This document shows, piece after piece, positions 99-28,804 of a DNA stretch of 64,000 nt. This DNA is from Coleofasciculus sp. FACHB-1120 (GTDB taxonomy: Bacteria > Cyanobacteriota > Cyanobacteriia > Cyanobacteriales > FACHB-T130). The notes under the pieces are model-generated. The model was not told the origin of the DNA. It searched no databases and saw only the letters and a list, made by a program, of their open reading frames with translations. A program made the translations under genes and the position numbers. The stretch lies in the NCBI RefSeq assembly GCF_014698845.1, contig NZ_JACJTV010000004.1, positions 1 through 64,000 on the forward strand, in the 5' to 3' direction. Numbering within the stretch: the stretch's first letter is position 1; each line of letters opens with the position of its first letter.

Positions 99-368
99 AC
101 AATCTCTCACAGAAGAACAATTTACAGACATTTTCCCGATTTCTGCCGTGCTATTTCTGCCAAGTACGTTGCTTATCAAAAATATGGCTATGCCAAAGCA
201 ATTGAAGAATGTTGCGAGGAAGTACGAAGGATTGCTGTTGATTTATATAATCAGGGTAAATATCCCAACGAATCTCTTATTTCAAACCTAGTGTCTAAGC
301 CAGGACACTTCCGAGATAAAAAAGTTAAGCAAGCTCTCAAGGAAGTGCATCGTGAGCTTGGGCTATAA
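99..368 (+). pseudogene. 3' remnant of a TniQ/TnsD-like gene
   Basis: From the stop at 96-98 to TAA at 366-368 one frame is open. From about 129 it reads as a normal protein tail, with HFPDFCRAISAKY, YQKYGYAKAIEECCEEV, GKYPNESLISNLVSKPG and KQALKEVHRELGL. The layout 'helix - GxYPsxxxVxxLlxKPGxxRd - helix ending RELGL' resembles the C-terminal DNA-binding part of TniQ/TnsD transposition-targeting proteins (judged by eye). There is no start codon or ribosome binding site, and the sequence before about residue 10 does not look coding, so this is a truncated remnant directly behind an IS end. Part of the lost frame (TEEQFTDI) may survive one frame over at about 112-138, which would mean a frameshift. 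It could also be another small HTH protein. Confidence 0.4.
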
Positions 369-510
369 ACAGCTTTCTCTTGCCTGCTCCCAATCATCCC
401 CTTGCTGGAACCATAACTTTGCCGTCCTTTATTGGAAGCATAAGTTTGCCATTGCGGCAAACTTATGGGTAAAGTCACACGGAGAAGGTTGGGCGTGAGG
501 TTTATTCTTA

Positions 511-583
511 TGGAGCTAAGCGGATTCGAACCGCTGACCCCCTCAATGCCATTGAGGTGCTCTACCAACTGAGCTATAACCCC
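511..583 (-). tRNA. tRNA-Ala (anticodon GGC)
   Basis: On the minus strand a 73-nt cloverleaf can be folded by hand. It has an acceptor GGGGUUA pairing with UAGCUCC (one G-U and one U-G pair), a D arm GCUC/GAGC, an anticodon stem CCUCA/UGAGG with loop AUGGCAU (anticodon GGC), a T arm AGCGG-UUCGAAU-CCGCU, and discriminator A. CCA is not encoded, as is usual in cyanobacteria. Its 3' end faces the mobile-element debris at 1-368, about 140 bases away. Confidence 0.95.
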
Positions 584-650
584 TTACGGTGCTTTATGAT
601 TATGCCTTAAAAATTCGCAAGTCGTCAAGTAAAATTTCAGCAATTATAAA

Positions 651-863
651 TTAATAAAACGAACAGGGGTGTTGAGCAAGATGGCTGATATAACCCATGT
701 AGCTGTTCATCAGGAAATATACGACTAGCATGGCGGCTGCGGATAGCGCCACCAGGGTGCCAGCAAGCATTAAGGAGAACTCCTGTTGGTCGAAGGCTTC
801 CTGCATCAAGTGCAGCGACCACGCCACCAGAGCCACATCAAAAATTAAAATACTAACTAACAT
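651..863 (-). CDS. small two-helix membrane protein, unknown function
   Basis: This 70-residue protein contains two hydrophobic stretches: residues 2-15 (LVSILIFDVALVAW) and about 30-52 (SLMLAGTLVALSAAAMLVVYFL). They are separated by a short polar link (HLMQEAFDQQEF). The ATG at 861-863 has a GGAAG-like ribosome binding site about 15 bases upstream, which is rather far. It lies between hisF and tRNA-Ala on the same strand as both, about 100 bases after hisF. I do not recognise a family. Coding is supported by the hydrophobic pattern and start context; the function is unknown. Confidence 0.5.
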   Translation of the reverse strand: MLVSILIFDVALVAWSLHLMQEAFDQQEFSLMLAGTLVALSAAAMLVVYFLMNSYMGYISHLAQHPCSFY

Positions 864-965
864 AATTTACGTTTTGTAACACTTCCTTTATTCTAATATA
901 TACAACCGAACAGATTGATGCTACAAAGCCAAAGCCGCTTCTTCCAGAAGGAAGAAGTTTCGCCT

Positions 966-1736
966 TTACAAGAGCCGCACCGGCACTTGATGCTCTACAA
1001 GATAGTTTTTAATTTCTGATACAGTGAGTTCTCCGTAATGCAGGAGGGAAGCCAGCAGAGCCGCTTCCGCTTTCCCTTCCGTTAAGGCGTCATAAATGTG
1101 ACCCGTGTTACCAGCCCCACCGGAGGCAATCACTGGAATTTGTACTTGTTCTGCTATGGTACGGGTAAGCTCTAAGTCATAGCCTGCTTTGGTTCCATCA
1201 GCGTCCATACTCGTGACGAGCAGTTCGCCCGCGCCGCGTTGCTCGACTTCTTGCGCCCAATTGATCGCATCGATGCCTGTGTTTTCCCGCCCACCACGCA
1301 CGTAAACATCCCAACCGGGATTGCTGGGATCTTGTCGTTTCCGTGCATCAATTGCTACCACGATGCACTGGTTGCCGAAGCGATCGCTCGCCCGATCGAT
1401 CAACTCTGGATCGCGTACCGCCGCCGAGTTAATGCTGACTTTGTCTGCGCCAGCCCTTAACAATTGTTTAATATTTTCTAAGGATTGAATTCCCCCGCCC
1501 ACGGTAAGGGGGATAAATACCTGTTCAGCGGTGCGGTATACCACATCCAGAATGATGCCCCGGTCTTCGTGAGTGGCAGTAATATCCAGAAACACCAACT
1601 CATCTGCACCCGCCTGATTATAAGCTTGTGCCAGTTCCACCGGATCGCCAGCATCCTGGAGATTGACAAAGTTAACCCCTTTGACAACTCGCCCCGCTTT
1701 CACATCTAAGCAAGGCAGTATTCTTTTTGCAAGCAT
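966..1736 (-). CDS. hisF: imidazole glycerol phosphate synthase cyclase subunit HisF
   Basis: HisF is the synthase/cyclase subunit that uses ammonia from the partner HisH to turn PRFAR into imidazole glycerol phosphate and AICAR in histidine biosynthesis (cytosolic). The 256-residue protein has the normal length and a (beta/alpha)8 half-barrel repeat pattern. The two catalytic aspartates are in place: Asp11 in [12 protein letters not shown] and Asp130 in VVAIDARK. Phosphate-binding loops TVGGGI (78-83) and ASGGAG are also visible. The ATG at 1734-1736 has GAGGA five bases upstream. No other his gene is adjacent, which is normal in cyanobacteria where his genes are scattered. Confidence 0.97.
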
Positions 1737-1839
1737 GACGATCCTCTGGTTCCCCGATGTAATGATAATGAAAGCCTACACACTTTAAACCTTCTGTGTC
1801 TTCGGATCTGGGTAGTGTTTTTAAAATAAATTTTTAATC

Positions 1840-2943
1840 ATGGCGATAATTTCTTCTAAACAGCAGCCGCAAGAACCCAACGGGCAACCCCAGGAACGCC
1901 GAAAGCCAGGGGGACGCCGGAAATCTCAGCCAGAGGAAACGGTTGAAGAGTTATTACAGCCAACTGTCGCAATGGACGAAACCGAGAAGCAAGAAGAAGG
2001 TCTGCGACCCCAACGACTGGCTGAGTATATCGGGCAAAAAGACCTCAAGGGCGTTCTAGAAATTGCGATTCAAGCGGCAAAAGGCAGAGACGAGTCGATG
2101 GATCACTTGCTGCTGTATGGCCCGCCGGGTTTGGGCAAAACCACAATGTCGCTGATTTTGGCGACGGAGATGGGAACCACTTGTAAAATCACCTCTGCAC
2201 CCGCGTTGGAGCGTCCCCGCGATATTGTGGGGATACTCATGAGCCTAAAGCCGGGAGATATTATATTTATTGACGAAATCCACCGCTTGAGCCGAATGAC
2301 AGAGGAATTGCTTTATCCGGCAATGGAGGATTTTCGGTTAGATATTACGATTGGCAAGGGTCAAAGTGCGAAAACTCGCAGTTTGCCGCTACCGCCATTT
2401 ACGCTAGTAGGAGCAACGACGCGGGTAGGTTCCCTGTCGTCACCCTTGCGCGATCGCTTTGGCTTAATTCAACGGTTACGCTTTTATGAGTTGGATGAAC
2501 TGATTTTGATTGTGCAGCGGACTGCTGAGGTGATCCAAGCCCCGGTTACGCCGGATGGTGCTGAAGAAATTGCGCGTCGTTCTCGTGGAACTCCCCGAAT
2601 TGCCAATCGCCTTTTAAAACGGGTGCGAGATTTTGCTCAGGTAAAAAAATTTGGGGAAATTACTAAACCTGTTGCGGTGGAAGCTTTGGAAGTCTTCGGT
2701 GTAGATCCGATGGGTTTGGATTGGGCAGATCGGTTGATGCTGACCGTGATGATAGAACAATTTAATGGGGGGCCTGTAGGCTTGGAAGCGATCGCCGCCG
2801 CCACAGGGGAAGATGCCCAAACAATTGAAGATGTCTACGAGCCGTATTTATTGCAGATTGGCTATTTGCACCGCACGCCTCGCGGTCGCATTGCCACTCC
2901 AGCAGCCCGAAAGCACTTAGGATATGATTCGTCATTATTCTAA
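1840..2943 (+). CDS. ruvB: Holliday junction branch migration helicase RuvB
   Basis: RuvB is the AAA+ motor that, with RuvA, drives branch migration of Holliday junctions during recombinational repair. Walker A (GPPGLGKT, about residues 94-101), Walker B ([10 protein letters not shown], about 141-150), the sensor/arginine-finger stretch [17 protein letters not shown], and the C-terminal winged-helix domain beginning at [10 protein letters not shown] are all present. At 367 residues it is about 30 longer than E. coli RuvB because of a polar, low-complexity N-terminal extension (residues 1-45, rich in Q, P, R, K, E), common in cyanobacterial orthologues. No clear ribosome binding site precedes the ATG. 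Divergent from hisF with a gap of about 100 bases. ruvA and ruvC are not in the window. Confidence 0.97.
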
Positions 2944-3038
2944 GGATAATAAGCTAAAGACAAATGACGAATACAGCAGTAGTAGGATGGGCATTGCCTA
3001 CGGATTATCGCAATTCTCGTTTGGATGCAGTACCGTTT

Positions 3039-3122
3039 AACCCCACCCCTGCCCCTCCCCGCAAGCGAGGAGGGGTTGAAAACTGCTCTTTGCTTGCAAA
3101 GAAAAGAGGGGTTGGGGTGAGG
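3039..3122. repeat. intergenic C/G-rich palindromic repeat
   Basis: A run of C-rich sequence (CCCCACCCCTGCCCCTCCCC) is followed by its imperfect complement (GAGGGGTTGGGGTGAGG) 40-50 bases later. A smaller CCCCTCC...GGAGGGG hairpin and a CTTTGC/GCAAAG hairpin sit inside. Such GC-rich interspersed repeats are common between genes in filamentous cyanobacteria. It lies between ruvB and the TPR gene and creates a spurious reading frame from 2964. Confidence 0.5.
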
Positions 3123-3212
3123 TGACGAAGTGTGTATTGCAACAAAGGGAGTACCGCGATAGCTTTCTGCTGGGCAGCGCCTATGCTACCAAAATCTAAA
3201 AGCCAAGATAAT

Positions 3213-4034
3213 ATGATTCGTTGGATTCTGACTTTACTGAGCATTCTGTTTATTACTGTTTCAACTGGGTTCGTCAATGTAACGCCAGCGATCGCGCAAG
3301 AACAACCTTCTACTTACACGGAAGCTGAGTTGCAGGAAGGAGATGAACTCGCAGCTAAAGCGTTTACCGCGACAAATGCCGGTGATTTTGTTACGGCTGA
3401 AGGGCTTTGGACACAGCTAATTGAGCGATTTCCCAGTAATCCGGCTATTTGGAGCAATCGGGGAAATTCTAAGGTAAGCCAGAATAAATTGTCAGAGGCG
3501 ATCGCTGACTTCAATAAATCTATTGAACTCGCCCCAGACGCCACCGATCCCTATCTGAATCGCGGTACAGCATTAGAAGGACAGGGGAAATATTTGGAAG
3601 CGATCGCCGATTACAATCGGGTGTTGGAAATCGATCCCAAGGATGCAATGGCTTACAACAACCGGGGGAATGCCAAAGCGGGAATGGGCGAGTGGGAGGA
3701 AGCGATCGCCGACTACAAAAAAGCAGCCGATCTCGCTCCTAATTTTGCGTTTGCCAGGGCCAATTACGCGATCGCGCTGTATCAAATGGGCGAACAAAAA
3801 GAAGCGATTCGCACTATGAAGAATATTGTTCGCAAATACCCCCAGTTTCCTGATATGCGGGCTGCCCTTACTGCGGCCCTCTGGGAACAGGGAAATCGGG
3901 GTGAAGCCGAAAGTAACTGGGTTGCGGTTGTCGGAATCGATCGTCGTTATAAAGATATTGACTGGGTGAAAACTGTCCGCCGTTGGCCTCCAGTTATGGT
4001 TGCCGCCTTAGAGAAATTTCTGAGTTTACAATAA
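3213..4034 (+). CDS. exported TPR protein
   Basis: A 273-residue protein with a cleavable signal peptide (MIRWILTLLSILFITVS... ending AIAQ-E), so it acts in the periplasm or thylakoid lumen. At least three to four tetratricopeptide repeats follow, with signatures AIWSNRGNSKVSQNKLSEAIADF, PYLNRGTALEGQGKYLEAIADY and AYNNRGNAKAGMGEWEEAIADY as the A/B helices. TPRs mediate protein-protein contacts; the partner is unknown. I chose the ATG at 3213 because it places the signal peptide at the N-terminus; the frame is open further upstream to 3132, but that extension would run through repeat-derived sequence. HIP1 octamers fall at similar points of successive repeats. A strong hairpin follows the stop. 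Confidence 0.85.
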   Translation: MIRWILTLLSILFITVSTGFVNVTPAIAQEQPSTYTEAELQEGDELAAKAFTATNAGDFVTAEGLWTQLIERFPSNPAIWSNRGNSKVSQNKLSEAIADFNKSIELAPDATDPYLNRGTALEGQGKYLEAIADYNRVLEIDPKDAMAYNNRGNAKAGMGEWEEAIADYKKAADLAPNFAFARANYAIALYQMGEQKEAIRTMKNIVRKYPQFPDMRAALTAALWEQGNRGEAESNWVAVVGIDRRYKDIDWVKTVRRWPPVMVAALEKFLSLQ

Positions 4035-4073
4035 AGGCGATTGCAATTAGTCTGAAGCTTTGTGCAACCAAAA

Positions 4074-4110
4074 TGAGAGAACCGCTTTCTTGAAGAAAGC
4101 GGTTCTCTCA
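4074..4110. terminator. perfect 17-bp hairpin, bidirectional terminator
   Basis: TGAGAGAACCGCTTTCT and its exact reverse complement are separated by the three bases TGA, 40 bases after the TPR gene stop and 280 bases from the end of the convergent antiporter gene. No long U-run follows on either strand, so termination is inferred from the very stable stem and its position between convergent genes. Confidence 0.6.
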
Positions 4111-4391
4111 TTGGAGAATTTTCCGTATAGAGCTTCTGTATATAAACGATCGTGTTTAGTGAGAAAGAGCGATCGCGGTTTTGATTCACTTCTAAGGATG
4201 ACCTGGAAGCGAATCAAAACTTTTCTACAGTTCTAAGGTAATCTGCCTTGCCACGGTTCCCCCTCACCCTACCAGGTAAACAGGAATCACCCATTCAGGT
4301 TAGCGATCGCCTTTTTCAACGGTCGATAAACGCCACAGGAGTCATCAAAAAACACAAAAGCTCGAAGAAAGAACTTTTACCTTTTGTGTTT

Positions 4392-5513
4392 CTACCCGAT
4401 CCCCCCCATGACTGGGTGGAAGTAAAAAGCCAACGCCAAAATTGCATAAGCAGCCAATAGCAGCGTGCCTTCTAACCAGTTAGACTTGCCATCAGAACTA
4501 ATCGAATTGGCAATGAGTACCGACACCGCTACTGCTACCAATTCAAAGGGGTTGAAGTCCAAATCCATCGGTTTGTGCAACGCCCAACCTGTCAGAACGA
4601 GAACCGGAGCTACAAATAAAGCAATCTGCAAGCTAGAACCCACCGCCACCGAGATAGAAAGATCCATCTTATTTTTCATCGCCACGGTAACAGCAGTGGC
4701 GTGTTCGGCAGCATTGCCAATAATCGGAACCAGGATCACCCCTGTAAACAGTGCCGTCAGACCTAGTTGGGAGGTGGCTTCTTCCAAAGAGGAAACCAAT
4801 AGTTCCGACTCTGCTGCAACCAGGAGCGTTGCGCCTAATAGCACCCCAATCCATAGGGGCAGGTTAACTTTATGTTCGGGATCTTCTGGAGCGAGATTTG
4901 ACTCAGCTAACTCAGTGAGTATCTCCTGTTCTGCCACACCCGCATCATAGAGATAGCTGTGAGTCTTCATCGAAAATAGCAGCGTCAACCCATAGACTCC
5001 GATTAATACTACGGCAACGGCGACCGAAAGTTGCTGGACAATGGCTTCATCAATCCCGGTGGAGGTATAGTCCATTGCGGTTGGTAGCAGCATCGCAATC
5101 ACTGCTAGGTTCATTGCCGAGGCATTTACCCCTGCCACCATTGGCTGAAATTGCTGCTCTTTATAGCGCAAGCCCCCCAATAGCATGGAAAAGCCCATGA
5201 CCAGGAGTAAGTTGCTGATAATAGAGCCGGTGATACTCGCTTTGACGACATCCACCAGTCCCGCGTTGAGGGCAACGAGGGAGATAATGAGTTCGGTGGC
5301 GTTACCAAAAGTGGCATTCAGCAGTCCTCCCAAGGATGGGCCAAGAACAACCGCGATTTCCTCGGTGGCGGTGCCCATCCAAGCAGCAAGGGGAATGATC
5401 CCCAGACAAGCGGTGATGAAGACGACTGACGATCCCCATTCCAGAAAGTGGGCCGTAATGGAAATGGGGATAAACAACAAAAGAATGGAAAAAAGCGTGT
5501 TTAGAGACAGCAT
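4392..5513 (-). CDS. cax: Ca2+/H+ antiporter (CaCA superfamily, CAX type)
   Basis: This 373-residue integral membrane protein has about eleven hydrophobic segments. It carries the two signature alpha-repeats of CAX exchangers, GGLLNATFGNATELIISLV (about residues 61-80) and GNAAEHATAV in the second half, with the acidic residue of each GNxxE motif in place. An acidic stretch between the halves (EILTELAESNLAPEDPEHK) is typical of the CAX acidic linker. The family exchanges Ca2+ (sometimes other divalent cations) for protons across the plasma or thylakoid membrane, lowering cytosolic Ca2+ and giving salt/alkaline tolerance. Single gene, convergent with the TPR gene. Ion specificity cannot be read from sequence. 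Confidence 0.93.
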   Translation of the reverse strand: MLSLNTLFSILLLFIPISITAHFLEWGSSVVFITACLGIIPLAAWMGTATEEIAVVLGPSLGGLLNATFGNATELIISLVALNAGLVDVVKASITGSIISNLLLVMGFSMLLGGLRYKEQQFQPMVAGVNASAMNLAVIAMLLPTAMDYTSTGIDEAIVQQLSVAVAVVLIGVYGLTLLFSMKTHSYLYDAGVAEQEILTELAESNLAPEDPEHKVNLPLWIGVLLGATLLVAAESELLVSSLEEATSQLGLTALFTGVILVPIIGNAAEHATAVTVAMKNKMDLSISVAVGSSLQIALFVAPVLVLTGWALHKPMDLDFNPFELVAVAVSVLIANSISSDGKSNWLEGTLLLAAYAILALAFYFHPVMGGIG

Positions 5514-6005
5514 CCAAATTATTCGTATTTAGCTCGTGTCTAGGATAGCCGCTTGTTGAGTGTTCTGGCTTCTTTCAGTCTTTGAGTATGTAACGGAATA
5601 TTTCTTTAGATGCAGGATTCCTTAAGCAAAGTTAATTTACTATTCATTTGCATGAAGTTAGTGTTCCAAGCATGGCAGCATTACGCTTGAATCATGTAAG
5701 TAACAAGTAACTATCCTGGCTTTTCAATTTTGTTCATTGACCGCTACCGGCATGGGGCACAGGCAGTTGCTCATCGGTACGGGCAAAATAATTGGATGTT
5801 AAACCGATTGCTTTGATCCCCCCATTTAAGGAGAGAAGGCTTCGCCCCCAAGAGTCTTTGCCATGTTTGGGTGGTGAGTCTTCGCCTTCTCCAGATGGAC
5901 TGATTTAACTTGCTGTTTCCCTGGCGTTCAAGTAAACGCGGGGATGCTCAGTCTATCTGGATAAGTTATTGACCCTAATTTTTTACTAATTTTGGATGCG
6001 ATCCT
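5514..6005. other. gene-free region upstream of the divergent cax and GH57 genes
   Basis: No supported gene. The region must hold the promoters of both divergent genes. At about 5831-5893 an imperfect inverted repeat (GGAGAGAAGGCTTCGCC and its near-complement GTCTTCGCCTTCTCC) could form a hairpin. I could not identify a convincing -10/-35 pair or NtcA box. Confidence 0.5.
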
Positions 6006-8651
6006 ATGACTTCTGCTGCTGAAAGACCAGCTTCACAGTATTCTGCTGAGGGAACAGCAAACACCAGTGTAGCAACTGATCCCCTGCAAACGGCTACCGG
6101 CGTTTATGTTACGGTTCACGGTCATTTTTACCAACCCCCCCGCGAAAACCCTTATCTAGATGCGATTGAACGGCAGCCGAGTGCGTCTCCGTTCCATGAC
6201 TGGAATGAGCGGATTCACCATGAATGCTATCGCCCGAATGCCTTTGCCAGAGTGCTAAATGACCGGGGCGAAGTCGTGGGGATCGTGAATAACTATGAGT
6301 ATTTCAGCTTTAATATTGGTCCCACATTGATGTCGTGGCTGGAACGTTACGACGTAGAGGTATATCAGCGAATTCTGGAAGCGGATCGTAAAAGTAGCGA
6401 TCGCCTGAACGGACACGGCAATGCGATCGCGCAAGTTTACAATCACATCATCATGCCGCTTGCCAACGAGCGGGATAAGTACACCCAAATCCGCTGGGGT
6501 AAAGAAGACTTCCGCTCCCGATTTGGGCGCGATCCCGAAGGAATGTGGCTGGCTGAAACGGCCGTAGACTATGCAACCTTAGAAGCATTAGTTGCAGAAG
6601 GAATTAAGTTCATTGTTTTAGCACCTTCTCAAGCTGAACGTTGCCGACCAATCCCCACAGACGAACAGCCCGTGACTCAGTGGTTAGAAGTAGGCGGATC
6701 TCAGATCGATCCCACCCGTCCCTATCGCTGTTATCTGAAACCCACACTCAGCACGCAAGATTCACCCCTTAACACTGAGTATTCATTCCCCACCAACCAA
6801 ACCCCAGATACTCCTTACATCGATATCTTTTTCTACGATGGCCCGATCTCGCGGGACATGGGATTTAATGATGTACTGGGCTGGGCTGGGACGCTAGCTG
6901 GACGCATCGGTTCCGCTGTACGCGGGGATCACCGGACTTCGCAGCTCATCTCGGTTGGCACAGATGGCGAAACCTTTGGACACCACAAAAGCGGTACAGA
7001 GAAAACCTTAGCTTTTGCCTTTGTGGACGAGTTTCCCCGGCGCGGCTGGACTGTCACAAACTATGCTCATTATCTAAGTCTGAATCCTCCTACCTGGGAA
7101 GTGGAACTGAAGCCAGTCACGGCTTGGAGTTGCGCTCACGGAGTCAATCGATGGCAGGATGATTGCGGTTGCGGTGGCGAAGGTGGCGTTTGGCACCAAA
7201 AGTGGCGGCGTCCCCTGCGGAATGCCCTAGATTGGTTGCGGGATCAGTTAAGCAAAGTTTATGAAGAAACGGGTCACCAGTTCTTCCGCGATCCTTGGGC
7301 TACACGGGATGAATATATCCACGTGATTCGCGATCGCTCTCCTGCTAATGTAGAGCGCTTCCTCGCCCGCCATCGCACCCGTAAACTAACAGCATCAGAA
7401 CAAGTAGACGCCCTGCGCCTATTAGAGATGCAGCGCCATAGTCTGCTGATGTACACCAGTTGCGGCTGGTTCTTTGAAGAACTCTCAAGACCCGAAGGAA
7501 CGCAGATTCTCCGCTACGCCGCCAGAGCCTTGGAACTTGCCGGTGATGTCTCTGGTGTGCAGTTAGAAAAAGGATTTATCAAACGCCTCTCCCAAGCTCC
7601 CAGTAATGTTGATTTATTCAAGCATGGTGCTGAGGTGTACCGGCAACTGGTAGTCAGTGCCCAGATTGGGATCGAGCAAGTGGCAGCACACTATGCCATT
7701 AGTTCCCTATTCACCACCTATCCCCAGCAACAGCGGGTCTACTGTTACGATGCCCATCAGTTGGATTATCAGATGCAACGCATGGGGTCGCTGACTCTGG
7801 CTGTGGGGCAACTGCGACTAACTTCAGAAATTACCTGGGAAAGCACTCATTTAGTCTTTGCCGTTCTCCATTTGGGCGGCTGGGATTTCCACTGCTGCAT
7901 TCAACCCTTTGCTGGTCGCCGCAGTTATACCCATCTCAAGGAAAAGCTGTTTGCGGCGCTACAACAGGCGAGTGCGGCTCACGCGATCCTGGCAATGTCC
8001 CAGATGTTTGGGGGTTCTTCATTCAATTTGCAGAAATTATTTGCTGAGGAACGGCACCGGATTATGCGGTTACTCAGTCAGAAAACTTTAACCCGCCTAG
8101 ACCAGCTTTATACGCAGGTTTACCGCGATAACTACGGCATCTTGATGGCGTTCCAGCGCGATGAGCTACCTGTTCCGCAAGAATTGCAAGTAGCCGCAGA
8201 AGTAGCAATTTCTAACCGCGCCCGGATGTCTCTACGGGCACTAGAGCAAGAAAACGGCGAACCTCAGCAAGGTTTGAATCAACTGGCAGAACTGGAAGCG
8301 ATCGCCAAAGAAGCCAATCAGCTGCGCTGTCAGCTGAATATTCCGGATGCTAAGCGAACCTTGGAGCAGTTGATCTTGCGATCGCTCTGGAAGCTTCTGC
8401 ACGACTCTAACCCAGCCACTCTAGAAGCCGATATCCAACGCTTAGAGCGGATGATTTCTGTAGGCAATCAGCTACACCTGGGCTTATCTTTGCATCGCGC
8501 TCAAGAACTCTACTTTAGCTGTCTCCACAGCCAAATCGTGCCTCTGTTGGAATCAGAAACCAACGGCAATTCGTCTCAGCTCCGTCAGTTGCTATTACTC
8601 GGTCAAAAGCTAGCTGTAGATGTCAGTCCCCGGTTGAACCAACTGTCATAG
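6006..8651 (+). CDS. GH57-family glycoside hydrolase with DUF3536
   Basis: An 881-residue protein with the GH57 (beta/alpha)7-barrel in its N-terminal half. Conserved regions include the start motif HGHFYQPPRENPY (about residue 37), GMWLAETAVDYATLEALV (region III, with Glu as likely nucleophile) and SVGTDGETFGHHKSGTEK (region IV, with Asp as likely acid/base). The C-terminal half matches the layout of DUF3536 proteins. A Cys-rich knot CGCGGEGG sits after the barrel. GH57 enzymes are retaining alpha-glucan hydrolases/transferases (amylase, branching enzyme, 4-alpha-glucanotransferase); the substrate here is likely glycogen-like but not settled. No signal peptide, so cytosolic. A strong hairpin terminates the gene. 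Confidence 0.9.
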   Translation: MTSAAERPASQYSAEGTANTSVATDPLQTATGVYVTVHGHFYQPPRENPYLDAIERQPSASPFHDWNERIHHECYRPNAFARVLNDRGEVVGIVNNYEYFSFNIGPTLMSWLERYDVEVYQRILEADRKSSDRLNGHGNAIAQVYNHIIMPLANERDKYTQIRWGKEDFRSRFGRDPEGMWLAETAVDYATLEALVAEGIKFIVLAPSQAERCRPIPTDEQPVTQWLEVGGSQIDPTRPYRCYLKPTLSTQDSPLNTEYSFPTNQTPDTPYIDIFFYDGPISRDMGFNDVLGWAGTLAGRIGSAVRGDHRTSQLISVGTDGETFGHHKSGTEKTLAFAFVDEFPRRGWTVTNYAHYLSLNPPTWEVELKPVTAWSCAHGVNRWQDDCGCGGEGGVWHQKWRRPLRNALDWLRDQLSKVYEETGHQFFRDPWATRDEYIHVIRDRSPANVERFLARHRTRKLTASEQVDALRLLEMQRHSLLMYTSCGWFFEELSRPEGTQILRYAARALELAGDVSGVQLEKGFIKRLSQAPSNVDLFKHGAEVYRQLVVSAQIGIEQVAAHYAISSLFTTYPQQQRVYCYDAHQLDYQMQRMGSLTLAVGQLRLTSEITWESTHLVFAVLHLGGWDFHCCIQPFAGRRSYTHLKEKLFAALQQASAAHAILAMSQMFGGSSFNLQKLFAEERHRIMRLLSQKTLTRLDQLYTQVYRDNYGILMAFQRDELPVPQELQVAAEVAISNRARMSLRALEQENGEPQQGLNQLAELEAIAKEANQLRCQLNIPDAKRTLEQLILRSLWKLLHDSNPATLEADIQRLERMISVGNQLHLGLSLHRAQELYFSCLHSQIVPLLESETNGNSSQLRQLLLLGQKLAVDVSPRLNQLS

Positions 8652-18470: not shown

Positions 18471-20141
18471 TTACTGGCAGACAAACACCTTCGCTTCGTA
18501 CTCTGGCAAGTCAACCATTAAGGCATCCTCTCCAGCTTCAACTGGGGAGTTATTTATCCAATCCTGCCACGTCCCAGAGGATGGGACGTTAGGAATGCCA
18601 TACCCTGACAGAGACTTATCCGAGAAATTCGCCACAACGACAACATGGGAACCTTGTTCGTTCCAGCGGTAGTATGCCAACACTTTTGCCTCTGGATTTT
18701 CGTGGAAAAACTCAATGTTGTCGCTAGAAAGCGCTGGATTTTCTTTCCGTAGAGTGATTAACTTTTTGTAATACTCAAACAAATCTTGATTTAAGTCTCT
18801 TGAAAACAAAGGCCAAGCGATTTTCTTTGGCTGAGTCACGGTTTCGCTTTTGCGCTTGTGTTCTCCAAACTCTTCTCCCATCCAGAGCATTGGTACACCC
18901 ATCGCCGTCATTAACAGAACAGCTGCTAACTTGGCTCTCCTAAATGCGGCTTCGTCAAAAATCCCGCGATCGCCTAATTCTCTCATCAACCGTTGACGAT
19001 CGTGAGTTGCCAAATAATTCACTACATTCGTAGCAGCCGTATAACCCTGCCTTCTCGGATCTAAAACTTCCTTCAGTTTTTCTAATTCAAACATTTCGCC
19101 ACAAATATGTGGAAGCACAAAGTAGCGAAAACTTTCATGCCAACAACCATCCAGTGGGCCTTCTGGATAAACGACGGTTTTGGTATCGGGAATATGTTCG
19201 GCAATGTTGTAGAACGGCTTAGGCGCAGTATTTTTCTTGGCTTGCCAAGCCAGCCAAGAAAAAAATTCATAATTTGCCAATTGGCGCACGGCATCAAAAC
19301 GAATCCCATCAATGTGATATTCCTGAACCCAGAAACGCACCACATCTCCCACGTATTTCCAAGCAGGCTTAACATCTAACTTTTCGTCGTAGTTGTCGTA
19401 GTTAAATTCTGGTCCCCAGTAATTCGCCGGATCTTCTGGATAATGCATATGCTCGTAGTACCAGTAATTCCGGTCAATCAGCATTAATGGACATTCTTCA
19501 TCTGTGTGGTTATAAATCCCATCCATGAAAACGCGGATACCTCGACTATGACACTCGTCAATCAACCGCTTCAAATCTTCTGTGGAGCCGTAACTGGATT
19601 CTGTAGCGAAGTAGTGACGGACTGTATAGCCCCAATTGTAATCACCGGGATACTCATTCACTGGCATCAATTCGATGGCATTAATTCCGAGTTCGCTCAA
19701 ATGATCTAACTTAGCGATCGCGTCTTGGTATTTTCCTCGCTTGTGCGGATCATCCTCACCGCCAGAAAAGTCCGCAACGTGCATTTCATAAATGACTAAT
19801 TCGTGATTATTTGGCAAAGGTGTGTTGTCATGCTGCCAAACGTAAGCATCAACAATTCGCTTCCCATCTTTAATCCGCACTACACCGTTGTCTCTTGCTT
19901 CATCAATGTCTGTGGCGTAAGGATCAATTACATCCACCCATTGATTGGGTTCAAAATCTGGGCTTTTCGATTGAATGCGAAATTTATATTGATAGATGCC
20001 ATCCTCCAACTCAACCTGAGTTCGGAAATAGCCATCCTCACCTTTTTCCATTGGAATCTCTTTCCAGTCAGAAAAAGAACCTATCAATGACGCTCCTTGG
20101 TTGCGAGGAGCAAATAAATCGAATTTGATTGAACTTGCCAT
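18471..20141 (-). CDS. GH13 alpha-glucan enzyme with CBM48-like N-terminus (copy 1)
   Basis: A 556-residue GH13 enzyme. The N-terminal E-set/CBM48-like domain (about 1-110, NQGASLIGSFSDWKEIPM ... GIYQYKFRI) is followed by the (beta/alpha)8 domain. Conserved regions are intact: I VFMDGIYNHT, II GIRFDAVRQL (Asp nucleophile), III YNIAEHIP (Glu acid/base) and IV NYLATHDRQR (Asp). A C-terminal beta domain ends at VFVCQ. Architecture resembles the branching enzyme/trehalohydrolase branch of GH13; the exact reaction is not resolved. No signal peptide, so it probably acts on cytosolic glycogen or its oligosaccharides. A near-identical paralogue lies 1.1 kb upstream on the same strand. Confidence 0.9.
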   Translation of the reverse strand: MASSIKFDLFAPRNQGASLIGSFSDWKEIPMEKGEDGYFRTQVELEDGIYQYKFRIQSKSPDFEPNQWVDVIDPYATDIDEARDNGVVRIKDGKRIVDAYVWQHDNTPLPNNHELVIYEMHVADFSGGEDDPHKRGKYQDAIAKLDHLSELGINAIELMPVNEYPGDYNWGYTVRHYFATESSYGSTEDLKRLIDECHSRGIRVFMDGIYNHTDEECPLMLIDRNYWYYEHMHYPEDPANYWGPEFNYDNYDEKLDVKPAWKYVGDVVRFWVQEYHIDGIRFDAVRQLANYEFFSWLAWQAKKNTAPKPFYNIAEHIPDTKTVVYPEGPLDGCWHESFRYFVLPHICGEMFELEKLKEVLDPRRQGYTAATNVVNYLATHDRQRLMRELGDRGIFDEAAFRRAKLAAVLLMTAMGVPMLWMGEEFGEHKRKSETVTQPKKIAWPLFSRDLNQDLFEYYKKLITLRKENPALSSDNIEFFHENPEAKVLAYYRWNEQGSHVVVVANFSDKSLSGYGIPNVPSSGTWQDWINNSPVEAGEDALMVDLPEYEAKVFVCQ

Positions 20142-21263: not shown

Positions 21264-22916
21264 TTAATGCCAAACTAATACTTTGGCTTCGTAACCGCCT
21301 AAGTCGAGATGGATGCCATCCTCCCCAGCTTCGACATCATAATCGCCAGTCCATTCGTGCCAGGTTCCGGCTTCAGGGAAGTTAGGGACGTGATAGCCAC
21401 CCAAGAAGTTGTCGGAGAAGTTCGCGACAACGACGACACGAGAACCCTCGCCATTCCAACGACTGTAAGCTAATATCTTCGCTTCTGGATCTTCGTGGAT
21501 AAAGTCGATATTTTCCGTGTAGAGGGCATGATTATTTTTACGGAGATGAATCAAGCCTTTGATAAACTCAAACATACCGCGATTCAGGTCATGACCCAAT
21601 AGTGTCCAATCGATTTTTGCTTGTTCAGTTGTTTTGTATTTATACTCTCCGAACTCTTCACCCATCCACAGTAGAGGTACGCCGACAGCGGTCATATTGA
21701 TAACAGAACCTAACTTTCTCCGCTTAAATGCTTCTTCATCCAAAATGCCGCGATCGCCTAACTCAGCTAAAACATGATTGTGGTCGTGATTCGTTAGGTA
21801 ATTCACAACATTCGTGGCACCCATGAAGCCTTGTCGCTTGCAGTCAATGGCATCCTTGAGGCGCTCTAAATCAAAGGTGTCACCACAAATATGTTCTAGA
21901 ATGCAGTGATAGAAACTGTCGTGCCAGCAACCATCCATCGGACCGTCTACATTCGTAATGCTGGGGTTTTCAGGAATGTGTTCAGCAATGTTGTAAAACG
22001 GCTTTGGCCCAGCTGTATTTTTTGCTTCCTGAACAATCCAGTGCATGAAATCATAGTTGGCAATTTGCCTAGCCGCATCATAGCGAATGCCATCAATGTG
22101 AAATTCCTTAATCCAGAAGCGCACAGTATCACCAACAAACTTCCATGCAGGCTTAACATCTAGATTTTCATCATAGTGTTCGTAGTTAAACTCTGGCCCC
22201 CAGTTATTATCAGGGTCGCGGGGAGAATGATGGTACCAATAATCGTGGTCTATTTGTGTCAGAGGGCTTTCTGCTTCTGAGTGGTTAAAAATCCCGTCCA
22301 TAATGACGCGGATTCCACGACCATGACACTCATCAATTAGATTTTTTAACCCTTCAGTTGTGCCATAGCTGGATTCTGTGGCAAAGAAGTGGCGAGGATT
22401 ATAGCCCCAGCTATGGTCGCCTGGATACTCCTTCACTGGCATCAACTCGATGGCATTAACTCCCAGTTCGCAGAGGTAATCTAATTTTTCTACAACGTGT
22501 TCGTATTTACCGCGTGCGTAGGGATCATCCTCACCGCCGGAGAAGTCGCCAACGTGCAATTCGTAAATGACTAATTCGCGATCGCTTGGCAGTGGCTTAT
22601 CGTCATTTTTCCAAACGTATGTATCGACAATCCGTTCGCCATCTTTAATCCGGACAACACCGTTTTGGGTGGGGTTATCAATATCGGTGGCGTAGGGGTC
22701 AACCACCTCTACCCATTGATCTGGTTCAAAGAACCAAGATTTGGATTGGATGCGGAATTTATACTGATAAACTCCATCTTCCAGTTCAACTTTGGTACGG
22801 AAATAACCATCCTTACCTTTTTCCATTGGGATGTCTTCCCAGTTAGAAAAATCCCCAATTAAAGCAGCTCCATTGTTATAGGGAGCAAATAAATTAAATT
22901 CAATCGGAGTTGCCAT
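21264..22916 (-). CDS. GH13 alpha-glucan enzyme with CBM48-like N-terminus (copy 2)
   Basis: A 550-residue paralogue of the enzyme at 18471-20141, aligned along its whole length with almost no gaps. N-terminal E-set domain (NGAALIGDFSNWEDIPM), then GH13 regions I IMDGIFNHS, II GIRYDAARQI, III YNIAEHIP and IV NYLTNHDHNH, all catalytic residues present. The differences in region IV (NHDHNH here, THDRQR in copy 1) may alter subsite preference. ATG 22914-22916 gives the same N-terminus as copy 1 (MA-PIEFNLFAP versus MASSIKFDLFAP); an in-frame upstream ATG at 22973 adds 19 residues with no counterpart in copy 1. Exact activity unresolved; glycogen remodelling is the likely field. Confidence 0.9.
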   Translation of the reverse strand: MATPIEFNLFAPYNNGAALIGDFSNWEDIPMEKGKDGYFRTKVELEDGVYQYKFRIQSKSWFFEPDQWVEVVDPYATDIDNPTQNGVVRIKDGERIVDTYVWKNDDKPLPSDRELVIYELHVGDFSGGEDDPYARGKYEHVVEKLDYLCELGVNAIELMPVKEYPGDHSWGYNPRHFFATESSYGTTEGLKNLIDECHGRGIRVIMDGIFNHSEAESPLTQIDHDYWYHHSPRDPDNNWGPEFNYEHYDENLDVKPAWKFVGDTVRFWIKEFHIDGIRYDAARQIANYDFMHWIVQEAKNTAGPKPFYNIAEHIPENPSITNVDGPMDGCWHDSFYHCILEHICGDTFDLERLKDAIDCKRQGFMGATNVVNYLTNHDHNHVLAELGDRGILDEEAFKRRKLGSVINMTAVGVPLLWMGEEFGEYKYKTTEQAKIDWTLLGHDLNRGMFEFIKGLIHLRKNNHALYTENIDFIHEDPEAKILAYSRWNGEGSRVVVVANFSDNFLGGYHVPNFPEAGTWHEWTGDYDVEAGEDGIHLDLGGYEAKVLVWH

Positions 22917-23231
22917 AGAAGTGTTTGGAGTTTGATGAAAAAAATGCTTAGAGCAGTATTTTCTCCTTTTCATCCGGCTAAGGTATCGTTCTTGAGAAAT
23001 AAAGTTGCCTACCGTGCCCTAATTCCTAGGAGATAAGCGGTAATGAAAGATAAAGGCAATTTAGGCGGAATTTAAGCGATTAATGCAGAATTTGGGGCTA
23101 TTCTGGGCAATTGCTTTTACAGAAAATCTACCTGTTTTTAGTTGACTGAAATATGGCAGAAGAATCTAACCGCTAGTCCCCTTTTATCAAGAAGGGGACT
23201 AGCGGTTAAGTTTTTAATTTAGTTAATAGTA
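22917..23231. other. gene-free region between DUF1611 gene and GH13 copy 2
   Basis: Contains the upstream region of GH13 copy 2 and a strong hairpin at 23167-23208 next to the end of the DUF1611 gene. No reading frame is supported. Confidence 0.45.
23167..23208. terminator. 17-bp perfect hairpin after the DUF1611 gene
   Basis: TAACCGCTAGTCCCCTT pairs perfectly with 23192-23208 around an eight-base loop. On the minus strand it begins 23 bases after the DUF1611 stop. The right arm core GGGGACTAGCGG also occurs inside the 3' end of the CHAD gene (about 28773-28784), so the element is probably a mobile or interspersed repeat. Confidence 0.6.
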
Positions 23232-24275
23232 TTAAGTCATTACTGCATCTAACAGTGCGTCCACACCGAAGCGGACTGGATCGGTGCAGGGACGCTTTGT
23301 TTCTGCCTGTATCTGCTCGATTGCTCGTTGTGCTGTGTAGGCGTCGAGATGGGCGGTGTTGAGTGCGATCGCGACCACGGGCACTGGCGCAAATGCACCG
23401 GCTGCGGCTGCCACTGTCTCGTAAAGCTGAATGACCTCTGACAGAGGCGGAATCCGAACGTGGGGATGATTGCGAACGGTTGCTTGTTGCGCTCGATGTA
23501 CCAGCACTAGATGCGTTGGCTGAGTCCCGCGAATCAGTGGCAGCGTTGCGGTTGAGCCGGGATGCAACAGGGAGCCTTGTCCCTCCACAAACAGAATCTC
23601 ATGCTCCTCGCCAAAAAGCATCACCATTTGCTCAATAGCACCGGCAGCAAAGTCAACCCGCACAGCATCCAGCGGTATGCCATCCCCCGCTATCATTAAA
23701 CCGGCTTGACCTGTAGCCAGGAACTTAGAACGCAAACCGCGCTGCAATGCGGCTTTATTGAGTTCCAAACAGGTTGACATTTTGCCAATTGCCATATCCG
23801 TGCCGACGGCGAGAACCCGTTTGCAAGCGAGCGATCGCGCCTGTCCACTTCCTATCTTTAATCCTGCGGGTTCCTGACGCACATCCCAAATCCACTGCCC
23901 ATCTTTCAATAATGCTTGGATTTCCGGATGGGACGCCATTGGAGTATGCAGTCCATTGACGACGGACAACCCCCCTGCTACCCCTTGTTTCACTTCCTGC
24001 CACCATTCGTCTGGCAAGGCACCCCCTGGGGGTGCAATCCCAATCGCCAGGATATCGGGTGTATAAGCTAGCGCCTCTTCCACGGAAGCAACAATCGGAA
24101 CCTCACGGGGGATACCTGTCAATTCCCGCAATGACTCTCCCGCACACTGGCGATCGATGACTGCCACCACTAGCGCTTCAGTGTAGCGTAATAGCGCCAG
24201 CCCGGTTTTGCCGTGGATACCGCGAATCCCTTCATGTAGCAGAATTGCCACTCGATGTTTAGATGTCAAATGCAC
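23232..24275 (-). CDS. DUF1611 P-loop protein (DgcN-like)
   Basis: A 347-residue protein of family DUF1611. The N-terminal Rossmann-like domain (VAILLHEGIRGIHGKTGLALLRY, GIAPPGGALP) is followed by a P-loop domain with GTDMAIGKMST (about residue 160), reminiscent of dethiobiotin-synthetase-type NTPases, and VEGQGSLLHPGS. In the described D-glutamate catabolic pathway of marine bacteria, DgcN of this family acetylates D-glutamate and DgcA epimerises N-acetyl-D-Glu. The gene is 38 bases downstream of a DgcA-type epimerase on the same strand, so they form an operon. Function in this organism is inferred from that pairing; a role in cell-wall peptide recycling is an alternative. Confidence 0.8.
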   Translation of the reverse strand: MHLTSKHRVAILLHEGIRGIHGKTGLALLRYTEALVVAVIDRQCAGESLRELTGIPREVPIVASVEEALAYTPDILAIGIAPPGGALPDEWWQEVKQGVAGGLSVVNGLHTPMASHPEIQALLKDGQWIWDVRQEPAGLKIGSGQARSLACKRVLAVGTDMAIGKMSTCLELNKAALQRGLRSKFLATGQAGLMIAGDGIPLDAVRVDFAAGAIEQMVMLFGEEHEILFVEGQGSLLHPGSTATLPLIRGTQPTHLVLVHRAQQATVRNHPHVRIPPLSEVIQLYETVAAAAGAFAPVPVVAIALNTAHLDAYTAQRAIEQIQAETKRPCTDPVRFGVDALLDAVMT

Positions 24276-24313
24276 AGCTTTTTAGAAAATAGGGAACAGA
24301 AATTTATTCGGCA

Positions 24314-25405
24314 CTAAGGCGCTGCTTCGCTAATATTCTTCGCCCTGCGGGTAACTCCCAATCCGGGTAGATCGTTGGGTAGCAATCGCCCATCTTGGAT
24401 GGATGCGCCGCTAAAAGGATCGTCGATTAGATTCAGATGACTATCTAAATCTAGATAATCCGCTAGGGGTGAGAGTTGTGCCGCTGCCGTATTTGAGATG
24501 GCGCTGTCAGAATAGCAACCGAACATTACCTGCAATCCGCAAGCTTTCGCTGTATGTATCATGCGAATCGCTTCCGTTAAACCGCCACACTTCATTAGTT
24601 TGATATTAACGCCATGAACGCGGTCTGCCAGTTGCGGGATATCCTTGCTAGTAAAGCAACTTTCATCTACAAAAATGGGTAGAGGCGATCGCTTGTACAA
24701 TTCTTGAAACGACGATTCCCCCATTATCCCGGCTTCTGCTTCTCGTCCCAGTGGCTGTTCCACATACTTGACGCCCATCTTGGCTAGCCAACTGCACATC
24801 ATCACAGCGTCTTCCAGATTCCAACCCCCATTGGCATCGACGCTTAGCTGAGCATGGGGTGCTGCCTCCTGAATCGCCATCAGCATCGCTTGATCCGCTT
24901 CAATCCCCTCAGAACTACCCAATTTCACCTTCAAAACATTTGCCCCTGTCACCGGCTGCCAGTCGCGCAATCGCTGTACAGCCCCAGAGGGGGAATTAAT
25001 CCCAATCGTCACGGAGATAGGAACAATCCGATTTCGATCCAATCCCCACAGACGCCATAACGGTAATCCTAGCCGCTTTCCTTGCCAATCGTGCAACGCC
25101 ATATCAATGGCTGCCCACGCCGCAGAAGGCATTTGTGCCGCTTGCAACACCTCCTCAATTTTCTGCTTCTCCCAAGGGCTAAATGCCTCCAACAGCGGCG
25201 CGATGCCTTGCAATGCCTCCAAGAGAATCTCTGTGGTTTGTCGCGGTTGTCCCACTCCAATGGAAAAAGGCGAAGCTTCCCCCCAGCCTTCAATCCCGTC
25301 TGCGATCGCGCGTACCCACACATTCATGGTTTGCGCTGTCGTCCCGCGACTAATGGTTAAAGGAAATCGCTTGTTTACTGTGAAGGTTTCTACGCTAATC
25401 TGCAT
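24314..25405 (-). CDS. dipeptide epimerase / N-acetyl-Glu racemase type (enolase superfamily)
   Basis: A 363-residue enolase-superfamily protein of the muconate-lactonising subgroup. Catalytic features: KVKLG (the KxK base pair, about residues 163-165), metal ligands in SVDANGG (Asp), YVEQPL (Glu) and FVDESC (Asp), and the opposite-face lysine in INIKLMKCGG. The N-terminal capping domain is present. This layout fits L-Ala-D/L-Glu epimerase (YcjG/YkfB), and its DUF1611 neighbour suggests the DgcA role (N-acetyl-D-Glu to N-acetyl-L-Glu). First gene of the two-gene operon; divergent from the Nudix gene with only 47 bases between starts, so their promoters must overlap. Confidence 0.85.
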   Translation of the reverse strand: MQISVETFTVNKRFPLTISRGTTAQTMNVWVRAIADGIEGWGEASPFSIGVGQPRQTTEILLEALQGIAPLLEAFSPWEKQKIEEVLQAAQMPSAAWAAIDMALHDWQGKRLGLPLWRLWGLDRNRIVPISVTIGINSPSGAVQRLRDWQPVTGANVLKVKLGSSEGIEADQAMLMAIQEAAPHAQLSVDANGGWNLEDAVMMCSWLAKMGVKYVEQPLGREAEAGIMGESSFQELYKRSPLPIFVDESCFTSKDIPQLADRVHGVNIKLMKCGGLTEAIRMIHTAKACGLQVMFGCYSDSAISNTAAAQLSPLADYLDLDSHLNLIDDPFSGASIQDGRLLPNDLPGLGVTRRAKNISEAAP

Positions 25406-27718: not shown

Positions 27719-28804
27719 ATGAAAAAGCATACCCAAGAAAAAGCCAAGACTCTAGGAGATTGGGCATACCTAGCGATTGAAAAACACTTTCAGAAAACAA
27801 TTAAGCACGAATCTGATGTTATCAAAGACAAAGATCCAGAAGCTTTACACCAGATGCGCGTGGGAATTCGTCGCCTGCGTTCGGCGGTAAAGGGTTTTGC
27901 ACCCGCGCTGGATCTTCCTAAATCAGCCCAAGAAAACAAGATTGGGAAAATTGGTCATCGTCTTGGCGGTTTGCGGGATTTAGACGTGCTTCAGGATGCT
28001 CTGAAAAACCGTTACCATCCGAATCTACCTTCCAAAGAACAGAAATCCTTAAAGGAGGCGATGAATGCTCTAGATAAGCAGCGCCGACACGCACTAGAAC
28101 AAGTCCGGGAAACTTTGGATCATCAGGAATACAACAAACTCAAGCAATCATTGCAAGGGTGGCTGAAGCATCCAACTTATCAAGAAGTTGCTCAGATGCC
28201 AGTAGATCCGGTTCTGCCAGATTTATTATTGCCAGAAATTAGCCAGCTGTTGCTGCATCCAGGTTGGTTGCTAGGGGTTGAATTTAAAGGGGGACAGATT
28301 GAAACGGGTAACGATCTAGAACCCTCAGCCGTAGCGAAACTCTTAACAAAGGATGGGGAAGTTCTCCACAGTTTGCGGAAAGAAGCTAAGCGGGTGCGCT
28401 ACCAAATGGAACTATTTTCTGACTTCTATGGCCCAGCTTATGCTGGTTATCTGCAAGATGTAAGGTCAGTTCAGGAAACTTTGGGGAAAATTCAAGACTG
28501 CGTTGTTTTAGCAGATGTGCTGAGTGATGTCTTGCACTCCAAGCTCAAACACCAACTACCAACACTGACTGAACAGCTAGATCAAACTGTTTACGAAGCT
28601 TGGCAAGAGTGGCAACCCATACAAGAGCGTTACTTAAATTCCCAAACACGGCAAGCCTTTCACCTGGCGTTGTTGCAGCCGCGTGATGGAAGTGATATCA
28701 ACAATGAACCGAAAAATGAACACAAGAACGAGCATAAGAACGAACACAAGAACGAGCAAAGTGGCATAAAAGAGGGGACTAGCGGTATCGGTTTTGGCAC
28801 ATAG
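27719..28804 (+). CDS. CHAD domain protein
   Basis: A 361-residue protein with a full CHAD domain: the first conserved histidine motif EALHQMRVGIRRLRSAVKGF (about residues 41-60), GGLRDLDVLQDAL, and the C-terminal half with SLRKEAKRVRYQMELFSDFYG and LGKIQDCVVLADVL. CHAD domains are helical bundles with basic surfaces that bind polyphosphate. The last 40 residues are unusual: a Lys-Asn-Glu-His tandem repeat (NEHKNEHKNEHKNEQ), encoded by a 12-base DNA repeat at about 28710-28760, then a Gly-rich end derived from an interspersed repeat. Likely a polyP-associated scaffold; the window also holds a PPK2. Confidence 0.88.
   Translation: MKKHTQEKAKTLGDWAYLAIEKHFQKTIKHESDVIKDKDPEALHQMRVGIRRLRSAVKGFAPALDLPKSAQENKIGKIGHRLGGLRDLDVLQDALKNRYHPNLPSKEQKSLKEAMNALDKQRRHALEQVRETLDHQEYNKLKQSLQGWLKHPTYQEVAQMPVDPVLPDLLLPEISQLLLHPGWLLGVEFKGGQIETGNDLEPSAVAKLLTKDGEVLHSLRKEAKRVRYQMELFSDFYGPAYAGYLQDVRSVQETLGKIQDCVVLADVLSDVLHSKLKHQLPTLTEQLDQTVYEAWQEWQPIQERYLNSQTRQAFHLALLQPRDGSDINNEPKNEHKNEHKNEHKNEQSGIKEGTSGIGFGT

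What the first reader, a model, noticed from the sequence alone, without database searches (positions are those of the whole stretch)
23232..25405. DgcN/DgcA-like pair (DUF1611 + epimerase) in a cyanobacterium
Seen: DUF1611 protein with P-loop GTDMAIGKMST 38 bases downstream of an enolase-superfamily epimerase with the KxK/D-E-D/K residues. Known: DgcN (this family) and DgcA catabolise D-glutamate through N-acetyl-Glu in marine proteobacteria and haloarchaea. Inference: the host may recycle D-Glu, for example from peptidoglycan, into N-acetyl-L-Glu, an arginine precursor. I am not aware of this role being shown in cyanobacteria.
Basis: partly seen in the sequence, partly recalled or inferred. 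Interest (0 to 1): 0.55.

Follow-up and report, generated by a model that had tools for sequence, protein, structure and literature searches.

The report
Cyanobacterial DgcN/DgcA-like gene pair
Two neighbouring cyanobacterial genes form a widespread, tightly linked enzyme pair that resembles, but is not the same as, the bacterial D-glutamate recycling pair DgcN/DgcA, so it probably adds an acyl group to a D-amino acid and flips it to the L-form, although its real substrate is untested.

Summary
In detail: a 363-aa enolase-superfamily epimerase (24314-25405, minus) is followed after 38 bases by a 347-aa DUF1611 protein (23232-24275, minus). The link is strong: of 292 cyanobacterial-phylum genomes 82 have both and two have one alone (8 genomes with weak partial DUF1611 hits dropped); 76 of 83 epimerase genes lie within 2.4 kb of the DUF1611 gene, same strand. 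The DgcN/DgcA label is only partly right. Both proteins score about half the NCBIfam cut-offs (DgcN 236 of 480 bits, DgcA 194.5 of 400), form their own clades and have the opposite gene order. One Natronohydrobacter MAG carries a true dgcN-dgcA and this type, which argues for a different job there. The DUF1611 core residues are kept, and the P-loop lacks Ser/Thr after Lys in 90 of 90 proteins, which fits acyl-CoA better than Mg-NTP. Best reading: a DgcN/DgcA-like acylate-then-epimerise module of a distinct subfamily; D-glutamate is the likeliest substrate but unproven. Searches of the open-access library found no paper on the function of the cyanobacterial pair. New variant of a known kind, moderate interest.

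The parts
24314..25405 (-). Enolase-superfamily (MR/MLE, dipeptide-epimerase-like) epimerase, 363 aa, first gene of the pair
   Evidence: ORF; Pfam; NCBIfam DgcA 194.5 of 400 bits, PRK15129 L-Ala-D/L-Glu epimerase 141.9 of 343; model pLDDT 90.7, best structural match 3iji Z 45.6, rmsd 1.6, 333 aligned, 35% identity
24923..24931 (-). KxK motif (K159, K161) of the epimerase
   Evidence: invariant; role of the two active-site lysines in YkfB: PMC5808125, one section read
23232..24275 (-). DUF1611 protein, 347 aa, second gene; DgcN-like, proposed N-acyltransferase
   Evidence: ORF; Pfam; NCBIfam DgcN 236 of 480 bits; model pLDDT 94.1, 2obn Z 50.8 (68% identity), 7xrj (DgcN-25328) Z 36.7, rmsd 3.7, 329 aligned, 32% identity
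23772..23804 (-). P-loop GTDMAIGKMST (residues 158-168); residue after the Lys is Met, not Ser/Thr
   Evidence: GKM/GKR/GKK in 71/14/5 of 90 DUF1611 proteins
23166..23209 (-). Strong hairpin just downstream of the DUF1611 gene, possibly the end of the two-gene transcript
   Evidence: terminator-like on both strands (4 sites found in the region against 2.5 sd 1.5 in shuffles, so the count itself is no evidence); fold -32.3 kcal/mol, z -7.2; one arm recurs at 28774-28785, so a repeat element is not excluded

Best explanation
The two genes are a two-step module that works like DgcN/DgcA but belongs to a separate subfamily. The DUF1611 protein puts an acetyl (or other acyl) group from acyl-CoA on the amino group of a D-amino acid; the epimerase then inverts the alpha-carbon of the N-acyl amino acid. 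D-glutamate from peptidoglycan is the likeliest substrate, giving N-acetyl-L-glutamate, which can enter arginine synthesis or be deacetylated. Shown: adjacency, co-occurrence, parallel trees, predicted folds, intact conserved residues. Inferred: acyl transfer (from the family's named activity and the P-loop without Ser/Thr). Guessed: the D-Glu substrate.
For: Linkage: 82 of 292 genomes have both genes, one DUF1611 only, one epimerase only, after dropping 8 genomes with weak partial DUF1611 hits; 76 of 83 close together on one strand. Distances in the two trees correlate: r 0.93 over 58 loci, 0.81 within the window clade (35 loci), 0 of 2000 permutations as high (relatedness of species adds to this). 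Nineteen residues are at least 95% conserved over 90 DUF1611 rows, DgcN included, and the window has them; the P-loop lacks Ser/Thr after Lys in 90 of 90. Fold match to DgcN-25328. DUF1611 proteins of three separate clades pair with enolase-type epimerases, and the second DUF1611 type of cyanobacteria, 7 of 7 copies, with a PLP alanine-racemase-like gene. N-acyl hydrolases sit beside some pairs: a histone-deacetylase-fold gene directly upstream in 2 of 4 rhodobacter loci (L168, L177, both from CSSed162cm MAGs), a gene annotated D-aminoacylase beside the Natrinema pair. The genome has ArgJ, 4 histone-deacetylase-fold genes and one NlpC/P60 gene whose best solved relatives are 2hbw and 2evr.
Against: Both proteins miss the DgcN and DgcA cut-offs. 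Nine DUF1611 positions and ten epimerase positions are fixed differently from DgcN/DgcA, so substrate or acyl donor may differ. The Natronohydrobacter MAG carries both types, and its window-type pair stands with a class III aminotransferase and a BKACE gene, which hints at another amino acid. Of 20 neighbours scanned only the two deacetylase-fold genes look like N-acyl-amino-acid hydrolases; the others vary widely. The closest solved epimerase structures are dipeptide epimerases. MurI can already convert D-Glu. The window pair has no neighbour that points to a pathway.
Confidence: 0.55

Rival explanations
1. Murein-dipeptide recycling: the NlpC/P60 peptidase frees L-Ala-D-Glu, the epimerase makes L-Ala-L-Glu for ordinary dipeptidases, and the DUF1611 protein has a helper role such as acetylating leftover D-Glu.
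For: Best structural matches are Bacteroides dipeptide epimerase complexes with L-Ala-D-Glu (3iji, 3ijq). YcjG, a true L-Ala-D/L-Glu epimerase, nests inside the DgcA clade, so sequence does not separate the two substrates. G000 has a 2hbw/2evr-like peptidase; 71 of 82 pair genomes have one (E up to 1e-30). Halorussus has NlpC/P60, DUF1611 and epimerase genes in a row.
Against: 11 of 82 pair genomes lack that peptidase, and 61 genomes have it without the pair. It does not explain why the DUF1611 gene is kept almost without exception with the epimerase, also in 6 genomes where the genes are apart.
Confidence: 0.22
2. Same chemistry, other substrate: the module acylates and inverts a different amino acid (for example a cationic or hydrophobic one), with N-acetyl-Glu not involved.
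For: Clade-fixed differences from DgcN/DgcA; coexistence with true DgcN/DgcA in one MAG, beside aminotransferase III, BKACE and a deacetylase-fold gene; dipeptide epimerases of this fold have varied substrates (3rit with L-Arg-D-Lys, listed).
Against: The SRG loop and DLD motif shared with DgcA are kept; no direct evidence for another amino acid in cyanobacteria.
Confidence: 0.18
3. True DgcN/DgcA orthologue.
For: Best NCBIfam hits are DgcN and DgcA.
Against: Half the cut-off scores, separate clades, reversed gene order, both types in one MAG.
Confidence: 0.05

Closest known systems
DgcN / DgcA (NF041892, NF042940; EC 2.3.1.312 and 5.1.1.25)
   Same: Same two protein families side by side; same DUF1611 core (19 residues at least 95% over 90 rows); shared SRG loop and DLD motif in the epimerase
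   Different: About half the curated cut-off scores; own clades; epimerase gene first; fixed differences such as R249 (His in DgcN), M161 (Cys), S322/H323/N325 (Gly/Pro/Leu in DgcA); no regulator among the flanking genes scanned, unlike L061 with dgcR
2obn, DUF1611 protein Ava_3511 of Anabaena variabilis (solved structure)
   Same: Same subfamily by identity, 68%, Z 50.8
   Different: No function assigned in its title; neighbours not looked at here
[quoted passage not shown]
   Same: Fold, KxK, Asp/Glu/Asp, NIK lysine and DLD motif
   Different: Below the curated cut-offs (141.9 of 343; 122.3 of 500); own clade (99, 35 rows); tied to DUF1611, unlike ycjG, which sits beside mpaA
TM0796 (2g0t), DUF1611 of Thermotoga
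   Same: Same fold, Z 37.2
   Different: 32% identity; titled only putative nucleotide binding protein

Membership tests
DUF1611 (PF07755 + PF17396) | Curated Pfam cut-offs | tested here: met
   255.7 bits (cut-off 25) and 95.2 bits (cut-off 22.6)
DgcN (NF041892 equivalog) | Curated cut-off 480 bits | tested here: not met
   236 bits; positives 493.4 and 560.7
DgcN (NF041892 equivalog) | Falls in the DgcN clade | tested here: not met
   DgcN 18 rows are one side of a branch, SH-aLRT 100; window lies in a 44-row clade, 100 (quick method, no bootstrap; warnings for two long rows, L240 and L065, and for uneven composition)
DgcN (NF041892 equivalog) | D-Glu N-acetyltransferase activity | not testable with these tools
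   needs enzyme assay
DgcA (NF042940 equivalog) | Curated cut-off 400 bits | tested here: not met
   194.5 bits; positives 412 and 511.3
DgcA (NF042940 equivalog) | N-acetyl-D-Glu racemase activity | not testable with these tools
   needs enzyme assay
DgcN-DgcA operon | DUF1611 gene before the epimerase gene | tested here: not met
   epimerase first in the window and in 71 of 76 close pairs; DUF1611 first in 33 of the 34 loci whose DUF1611 best matches a DgcN query and that show a partner (the odd one, L217, is an overlong ORF call; 4 more showed no partner). DUF1611 first also in other non-DgcN types, so order alone does not define DgcN
Enolase superfamily, MR/MLE type | KxK, Asp-Glu-Asp metal ligands, second Lys | tested here: met
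   K159, K161, D190, E216, D247, K269 invariant
L-Ala-D/L-Glu epimerase (NF011708, NF041118) | Curated cut-offs 343 and 500 bits | tested here: not met
   141.9 and 122.3 bits
L-Ala-D/L-Glu epimerase (NF011708, NF041118) | Epimerises L-Ala-D/L-Glu | not testable with these tools
   DLD motif kept, but DgcA keeps it too, so it does not decide

The most novel reading that the evidence does not exclude
DUF1611 is the acylating half of a general acylate-then-invert amino-acid module that has taken different racemase partners in different lineages (three enolase-type clades and one PLP type). In cyanobacteria it turns cell-wall D-Glu into N-acetyl-L-Glu, a second entry into arginine synthesis beside the ArgJ cycle.
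Probability: 0.3. Interest if true: 0.65.

Novelty: new variant of a known kind. Interest (0 to 1): 0.42.

Why it matters
It would give a testable function to a protein family solved structurally in a cyanobacterium (2obn, released 2007) but titled only DUF1611, and suggest that the DgcN/DgcA idea is one branch of a wider set of paired acyltransferase-epimerase modules. In cyanobacteria it could join cell-wall turnover to arginine synthesis. Automatic naming of these genes as dgcN or dipeptide epimerase would be misleading.

Tried and rejected
Substrate from sequence: the DLD motif does not separate dipeptide epimerases from DgcA, and YcjG falls inside the DgcA clade, so epimerase sequence alone cannot settle the substrate.

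Partner by phylogenetic profile: the NlpC/P60 type and the histone-deacetylase fold both associate with the pair across 292 genomes (Fisher p 9e-20 and 1e-25; within the 132 peptidase genomes, deacetylase against pair p 2e-7), but both are widespread (132 and 130 of 292) and genome size and kinship are not controlled, so I give these little weight.

Fold search: the DUF1611 C-domain resembles SIMIBI P-loop proteins (Soj, BioD, SRP; Z about 13-14); this would fit an ATP-using ligase, which I consider less likely because of the P-loop residue and the named activity of DgcN.

Literature: the primary DgcN/DgcA paper is not held; its content is recalled (D-Glu pathway in marine proteobacteria and haloarchaea). 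Haloarchaeal DUF1611 L065 scores only 192 of 480 for DgcN, so if haloarchaeal proteins of that kind were shown active, the activity would span the family; I could not check this. Searches listed no paper on the function of the cyanobacterial pair; PMC3605383 does say that L-Ala-D/L-Glu epimerase genes are found in cyanobacteria (passage). Seen: passages of PMC10845958, PMC3605383, PMC9620832, PMC11747546 and PMC5808125, and one section of the last (91); other papers only as listings. The role of the Walker Ser/Thr in Mg binding, the specificity of 2hbw/2evr and the use of CF6-2 in the original work are recalled.

Rows used: the DUF1611 tree has 90 rows of 240 loci with a DUF1611 ORF (some loci hold the same gene), the epimerase tree 59 of 194 partner ORFs plus 9 references. 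Fixed-difference counts compare 44 window-clade with 17 DgcN rows (L066 left out) and 33 with 17 DgcA rows (truncated L003, L152 and the f39 rows left out). Before the counts I dropped 8 genomes whose only DUF1611 hits were weak and partial (E 5e-5 to 7e-4; marks 6 of them as over the cut-off with neighbours in the frame); counted in, DUF1611-only genomes would be 9. Five of the 82 pairs (family f39) are DUF1611-first; the three put in the trees fall outside the window clade. L128 (a Fimbriimonadales MAG contig) I treated as probably cyanobacterial.

Full report
What is there. The epimerase gene (24314-25405, minus, 363 aa) is followed after 38 bases by a DUF1611 gene (23232-24275, minus, 347 aa). 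The scan found no terminator-like site on the minus strand between them, and a long hairpin (23166-23209; fold -32.3 kcal/mol, z -7.2) lies just after the second gene, so a two-gene transcript is likely. Upstream is a divergent NUDIX gene, downstream two similar GH13 genes; nothing there points to a pathway. The host genome (6.2 Mb, 79 contigs) has one copy of each at the thresholds used.

How tight is the pair. In the same 292 genomes of the phylum, 83 have a DUF1611 gene (after dropping 8 genomes with weak partial hits), 83 have the epimerase, 82 have both. In 76 of 83 the two lie within 2.4 kb on one strand, 71 with the epimerase first and 5 (family f39) with DUF1611 first; in a few of these another ORF stands between them, for instance one on the other strand in L089. 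Six genomes hold them on different contigs (5) or 2.4 Mb apart (1) and still keep both. The DUF1611-only genome (G211) has the second type described below; the epimerase-only genome (G053) is 9% contaminated. In G266 remnants of both genes stand within one 304-aa frame. Outside cyanobacteria the same order recurs: 26 of 30 contigs with non-cyanobacterial titles among the 80 kept (one contig titled only 'bacterium' left out; of the four misses L160 starts at the DUF1611 gene and L128 may be cyanobacterial). Tree distances of partners correlate (r 0.93 over 58 loci; 0.81 within the window clade, 35 loci), part of which is species relatedness.

Is it DgcN/DgcA. NCBIfam gives DgcN 236 bits against a cut-off of 480 and DgcA 194.5 against 400. 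Controls pass: CF6-2 493.4 and 412; Natronohydrobacter L192 560.7 and 511.3. In the DUF1611 tree (90 rows, quick IQ-TREE, SH-aLRT only) the 18 DgcN rows stand alone (100, branch 1.86); the window is in a 44-row clade (100) of 24 cyanobacterial and 20 other rows; a third group (18 rows, 97) holds Bacteroidota, haloarchaeal and PLP-racemase-linked proteins; ten further rows (f39, L187, L229-L231, L236, L240, L243) lie outside these groups. In the epimerase tree (68 rows) the window clade (35 rows, 99) is apart from a clade (19 rows, 100) that mixes DgcA with E. coli YcjG and a Sinorhizobium dipeptide epimerase. So epimerase sequence cannot tell N-acetyl-Glu from L-Ala-D-Glu as substrate. One rhodobacter MAG (G297) carries both a true dgcN-dgcA and a window-type pair; I did not test for binning error.

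What it likely does. The 90 DUF1611 rows share a core of 19 residues (at least 95%), and the residue after the P-loop lysine is Met, Arg or Lys in 90 of 90, never Ser or Thr. In Mg-NTPases that Ser/Thr binds Mg (recalled), so CoA rather than ATP is the more natural ligand, in line with the acetyltransferase title of DgcN-25328 (7xrj). The window protein models well (pLDDT 94.1) and matches 2obn (Z 50.8, 68%), 2g0t (37.2) and 7xrj (36.7, rmsd 3.7, 329 aligned). The epimerase model (pLDDT 90.7) matches dipeptide epimerases best (3iji Z 45.6, 3ijq 45.5). N-acyl hydrolases occur beside some pairs: histone-deacetylase-fold genes directly upstream in L168 and L177 but not in L173 or L183, and a gene annotated D-aminoacylase in Natrinema (Amidohydro_3). 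Other neighbours are varied: class V aminotransferase (L180, L181), GH32 and sugar transporter with M81 peptidase (L184), beta-lactamase-fold hydrolase and S9 peptidase (L165), FAA hydrolase (L164), among others. From this I infer acylation of an amino acid followed by inversion of the N-acyl product. D-Glu is the likeliest substrate because it is the only one I know to be named for the family, but nine DUF1611 and ten epimerase positions are fixed differently, so another amino acid is quite possible.

Pathway fit in this genome. ArgJ (442.7 bits), MurI (283.6 bits), four histone-deacetylase-fold genes and one NlpC/P60 gene closest to 2hbw and 2evr (315 and 314 bits) are present; no Amidohydro_3 (D-aminoacylase-type) gene passes its cut-off (24.3 of 29.7). 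MurI alone could return D-Glu to L-Glu, so the pair would be a side route. It is dispensable: 11 genomes of genus g51 (1.6-1.7 Mb) that have the peptidase have neither gene of the pair.

Literature. [quoted passage not shown] DgcN-DgcA in Shewanella psychrophila in PMC10845958 (passages). PMC3605383 mentions L-Ala-D/L-Glu epimerase genes in cyanobacteria (passage). Searches listed no paper on the function of the cyanobacterial pair in that library; subscription journals are largely outside it.

Verdict. A real, widely conserved and well-linked pair; a type of its own beside DgcN/DgcA rather than DgcN/DgcA itself. New variant of a known kind.

Noticed in passing
L070-L076 (DUF1611 plus next gene), L067: A second DUF1611 type in cyanobacteria, in 7 of 7 copies followed at once by an alanine-racemase-like PLP gene (PF01168); the same pairing occurs in Aliiroseovarius. 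I did not search the literature for it.
   Followed up: partly
L168, locus positions 104-7014: Rhodobacter cluster: ABC transporter ATPase, class III aminotransferase, BKACE, a short ORF, histone-deacetylase-fold gene, epimerase, DUF1611, in a MAG that also has true dgcN-dgcA.
   Followed up: partly
window 18471-20141 and 21264-22973, minus: Two GH13 genes whose products are 65% identical, probably a local duplication.
   Followed up: no
window 23166-23209 and 28774-28785: The arm CCGCTAGTCCCC of the hairpin after the DUF1611 gene recurs once near the end of the CHAD-domain gene; 3 matches in the window, two of them the hairpin's own arms, against 0.21 expected. Perhaps a repeat element.
   Followed up: no
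L152, L153, L156, L157: Planctomycete pairs nest among cyanobacterial ones in both trees, suggesting transfer of the whole pair.
   Followed up: no
H11, H14-H19, H22-H34 of the listing: DUF1611 genes, many annotated dgcN, on enterobacterial plasmids (Klebsiella, Enterobacter, Pantoea); listing only.
   Followed up: no
G266:C1:700789-701334: Remnants of both genes within one 304-aa open frame in a genome of family f26.
   Followed up: no
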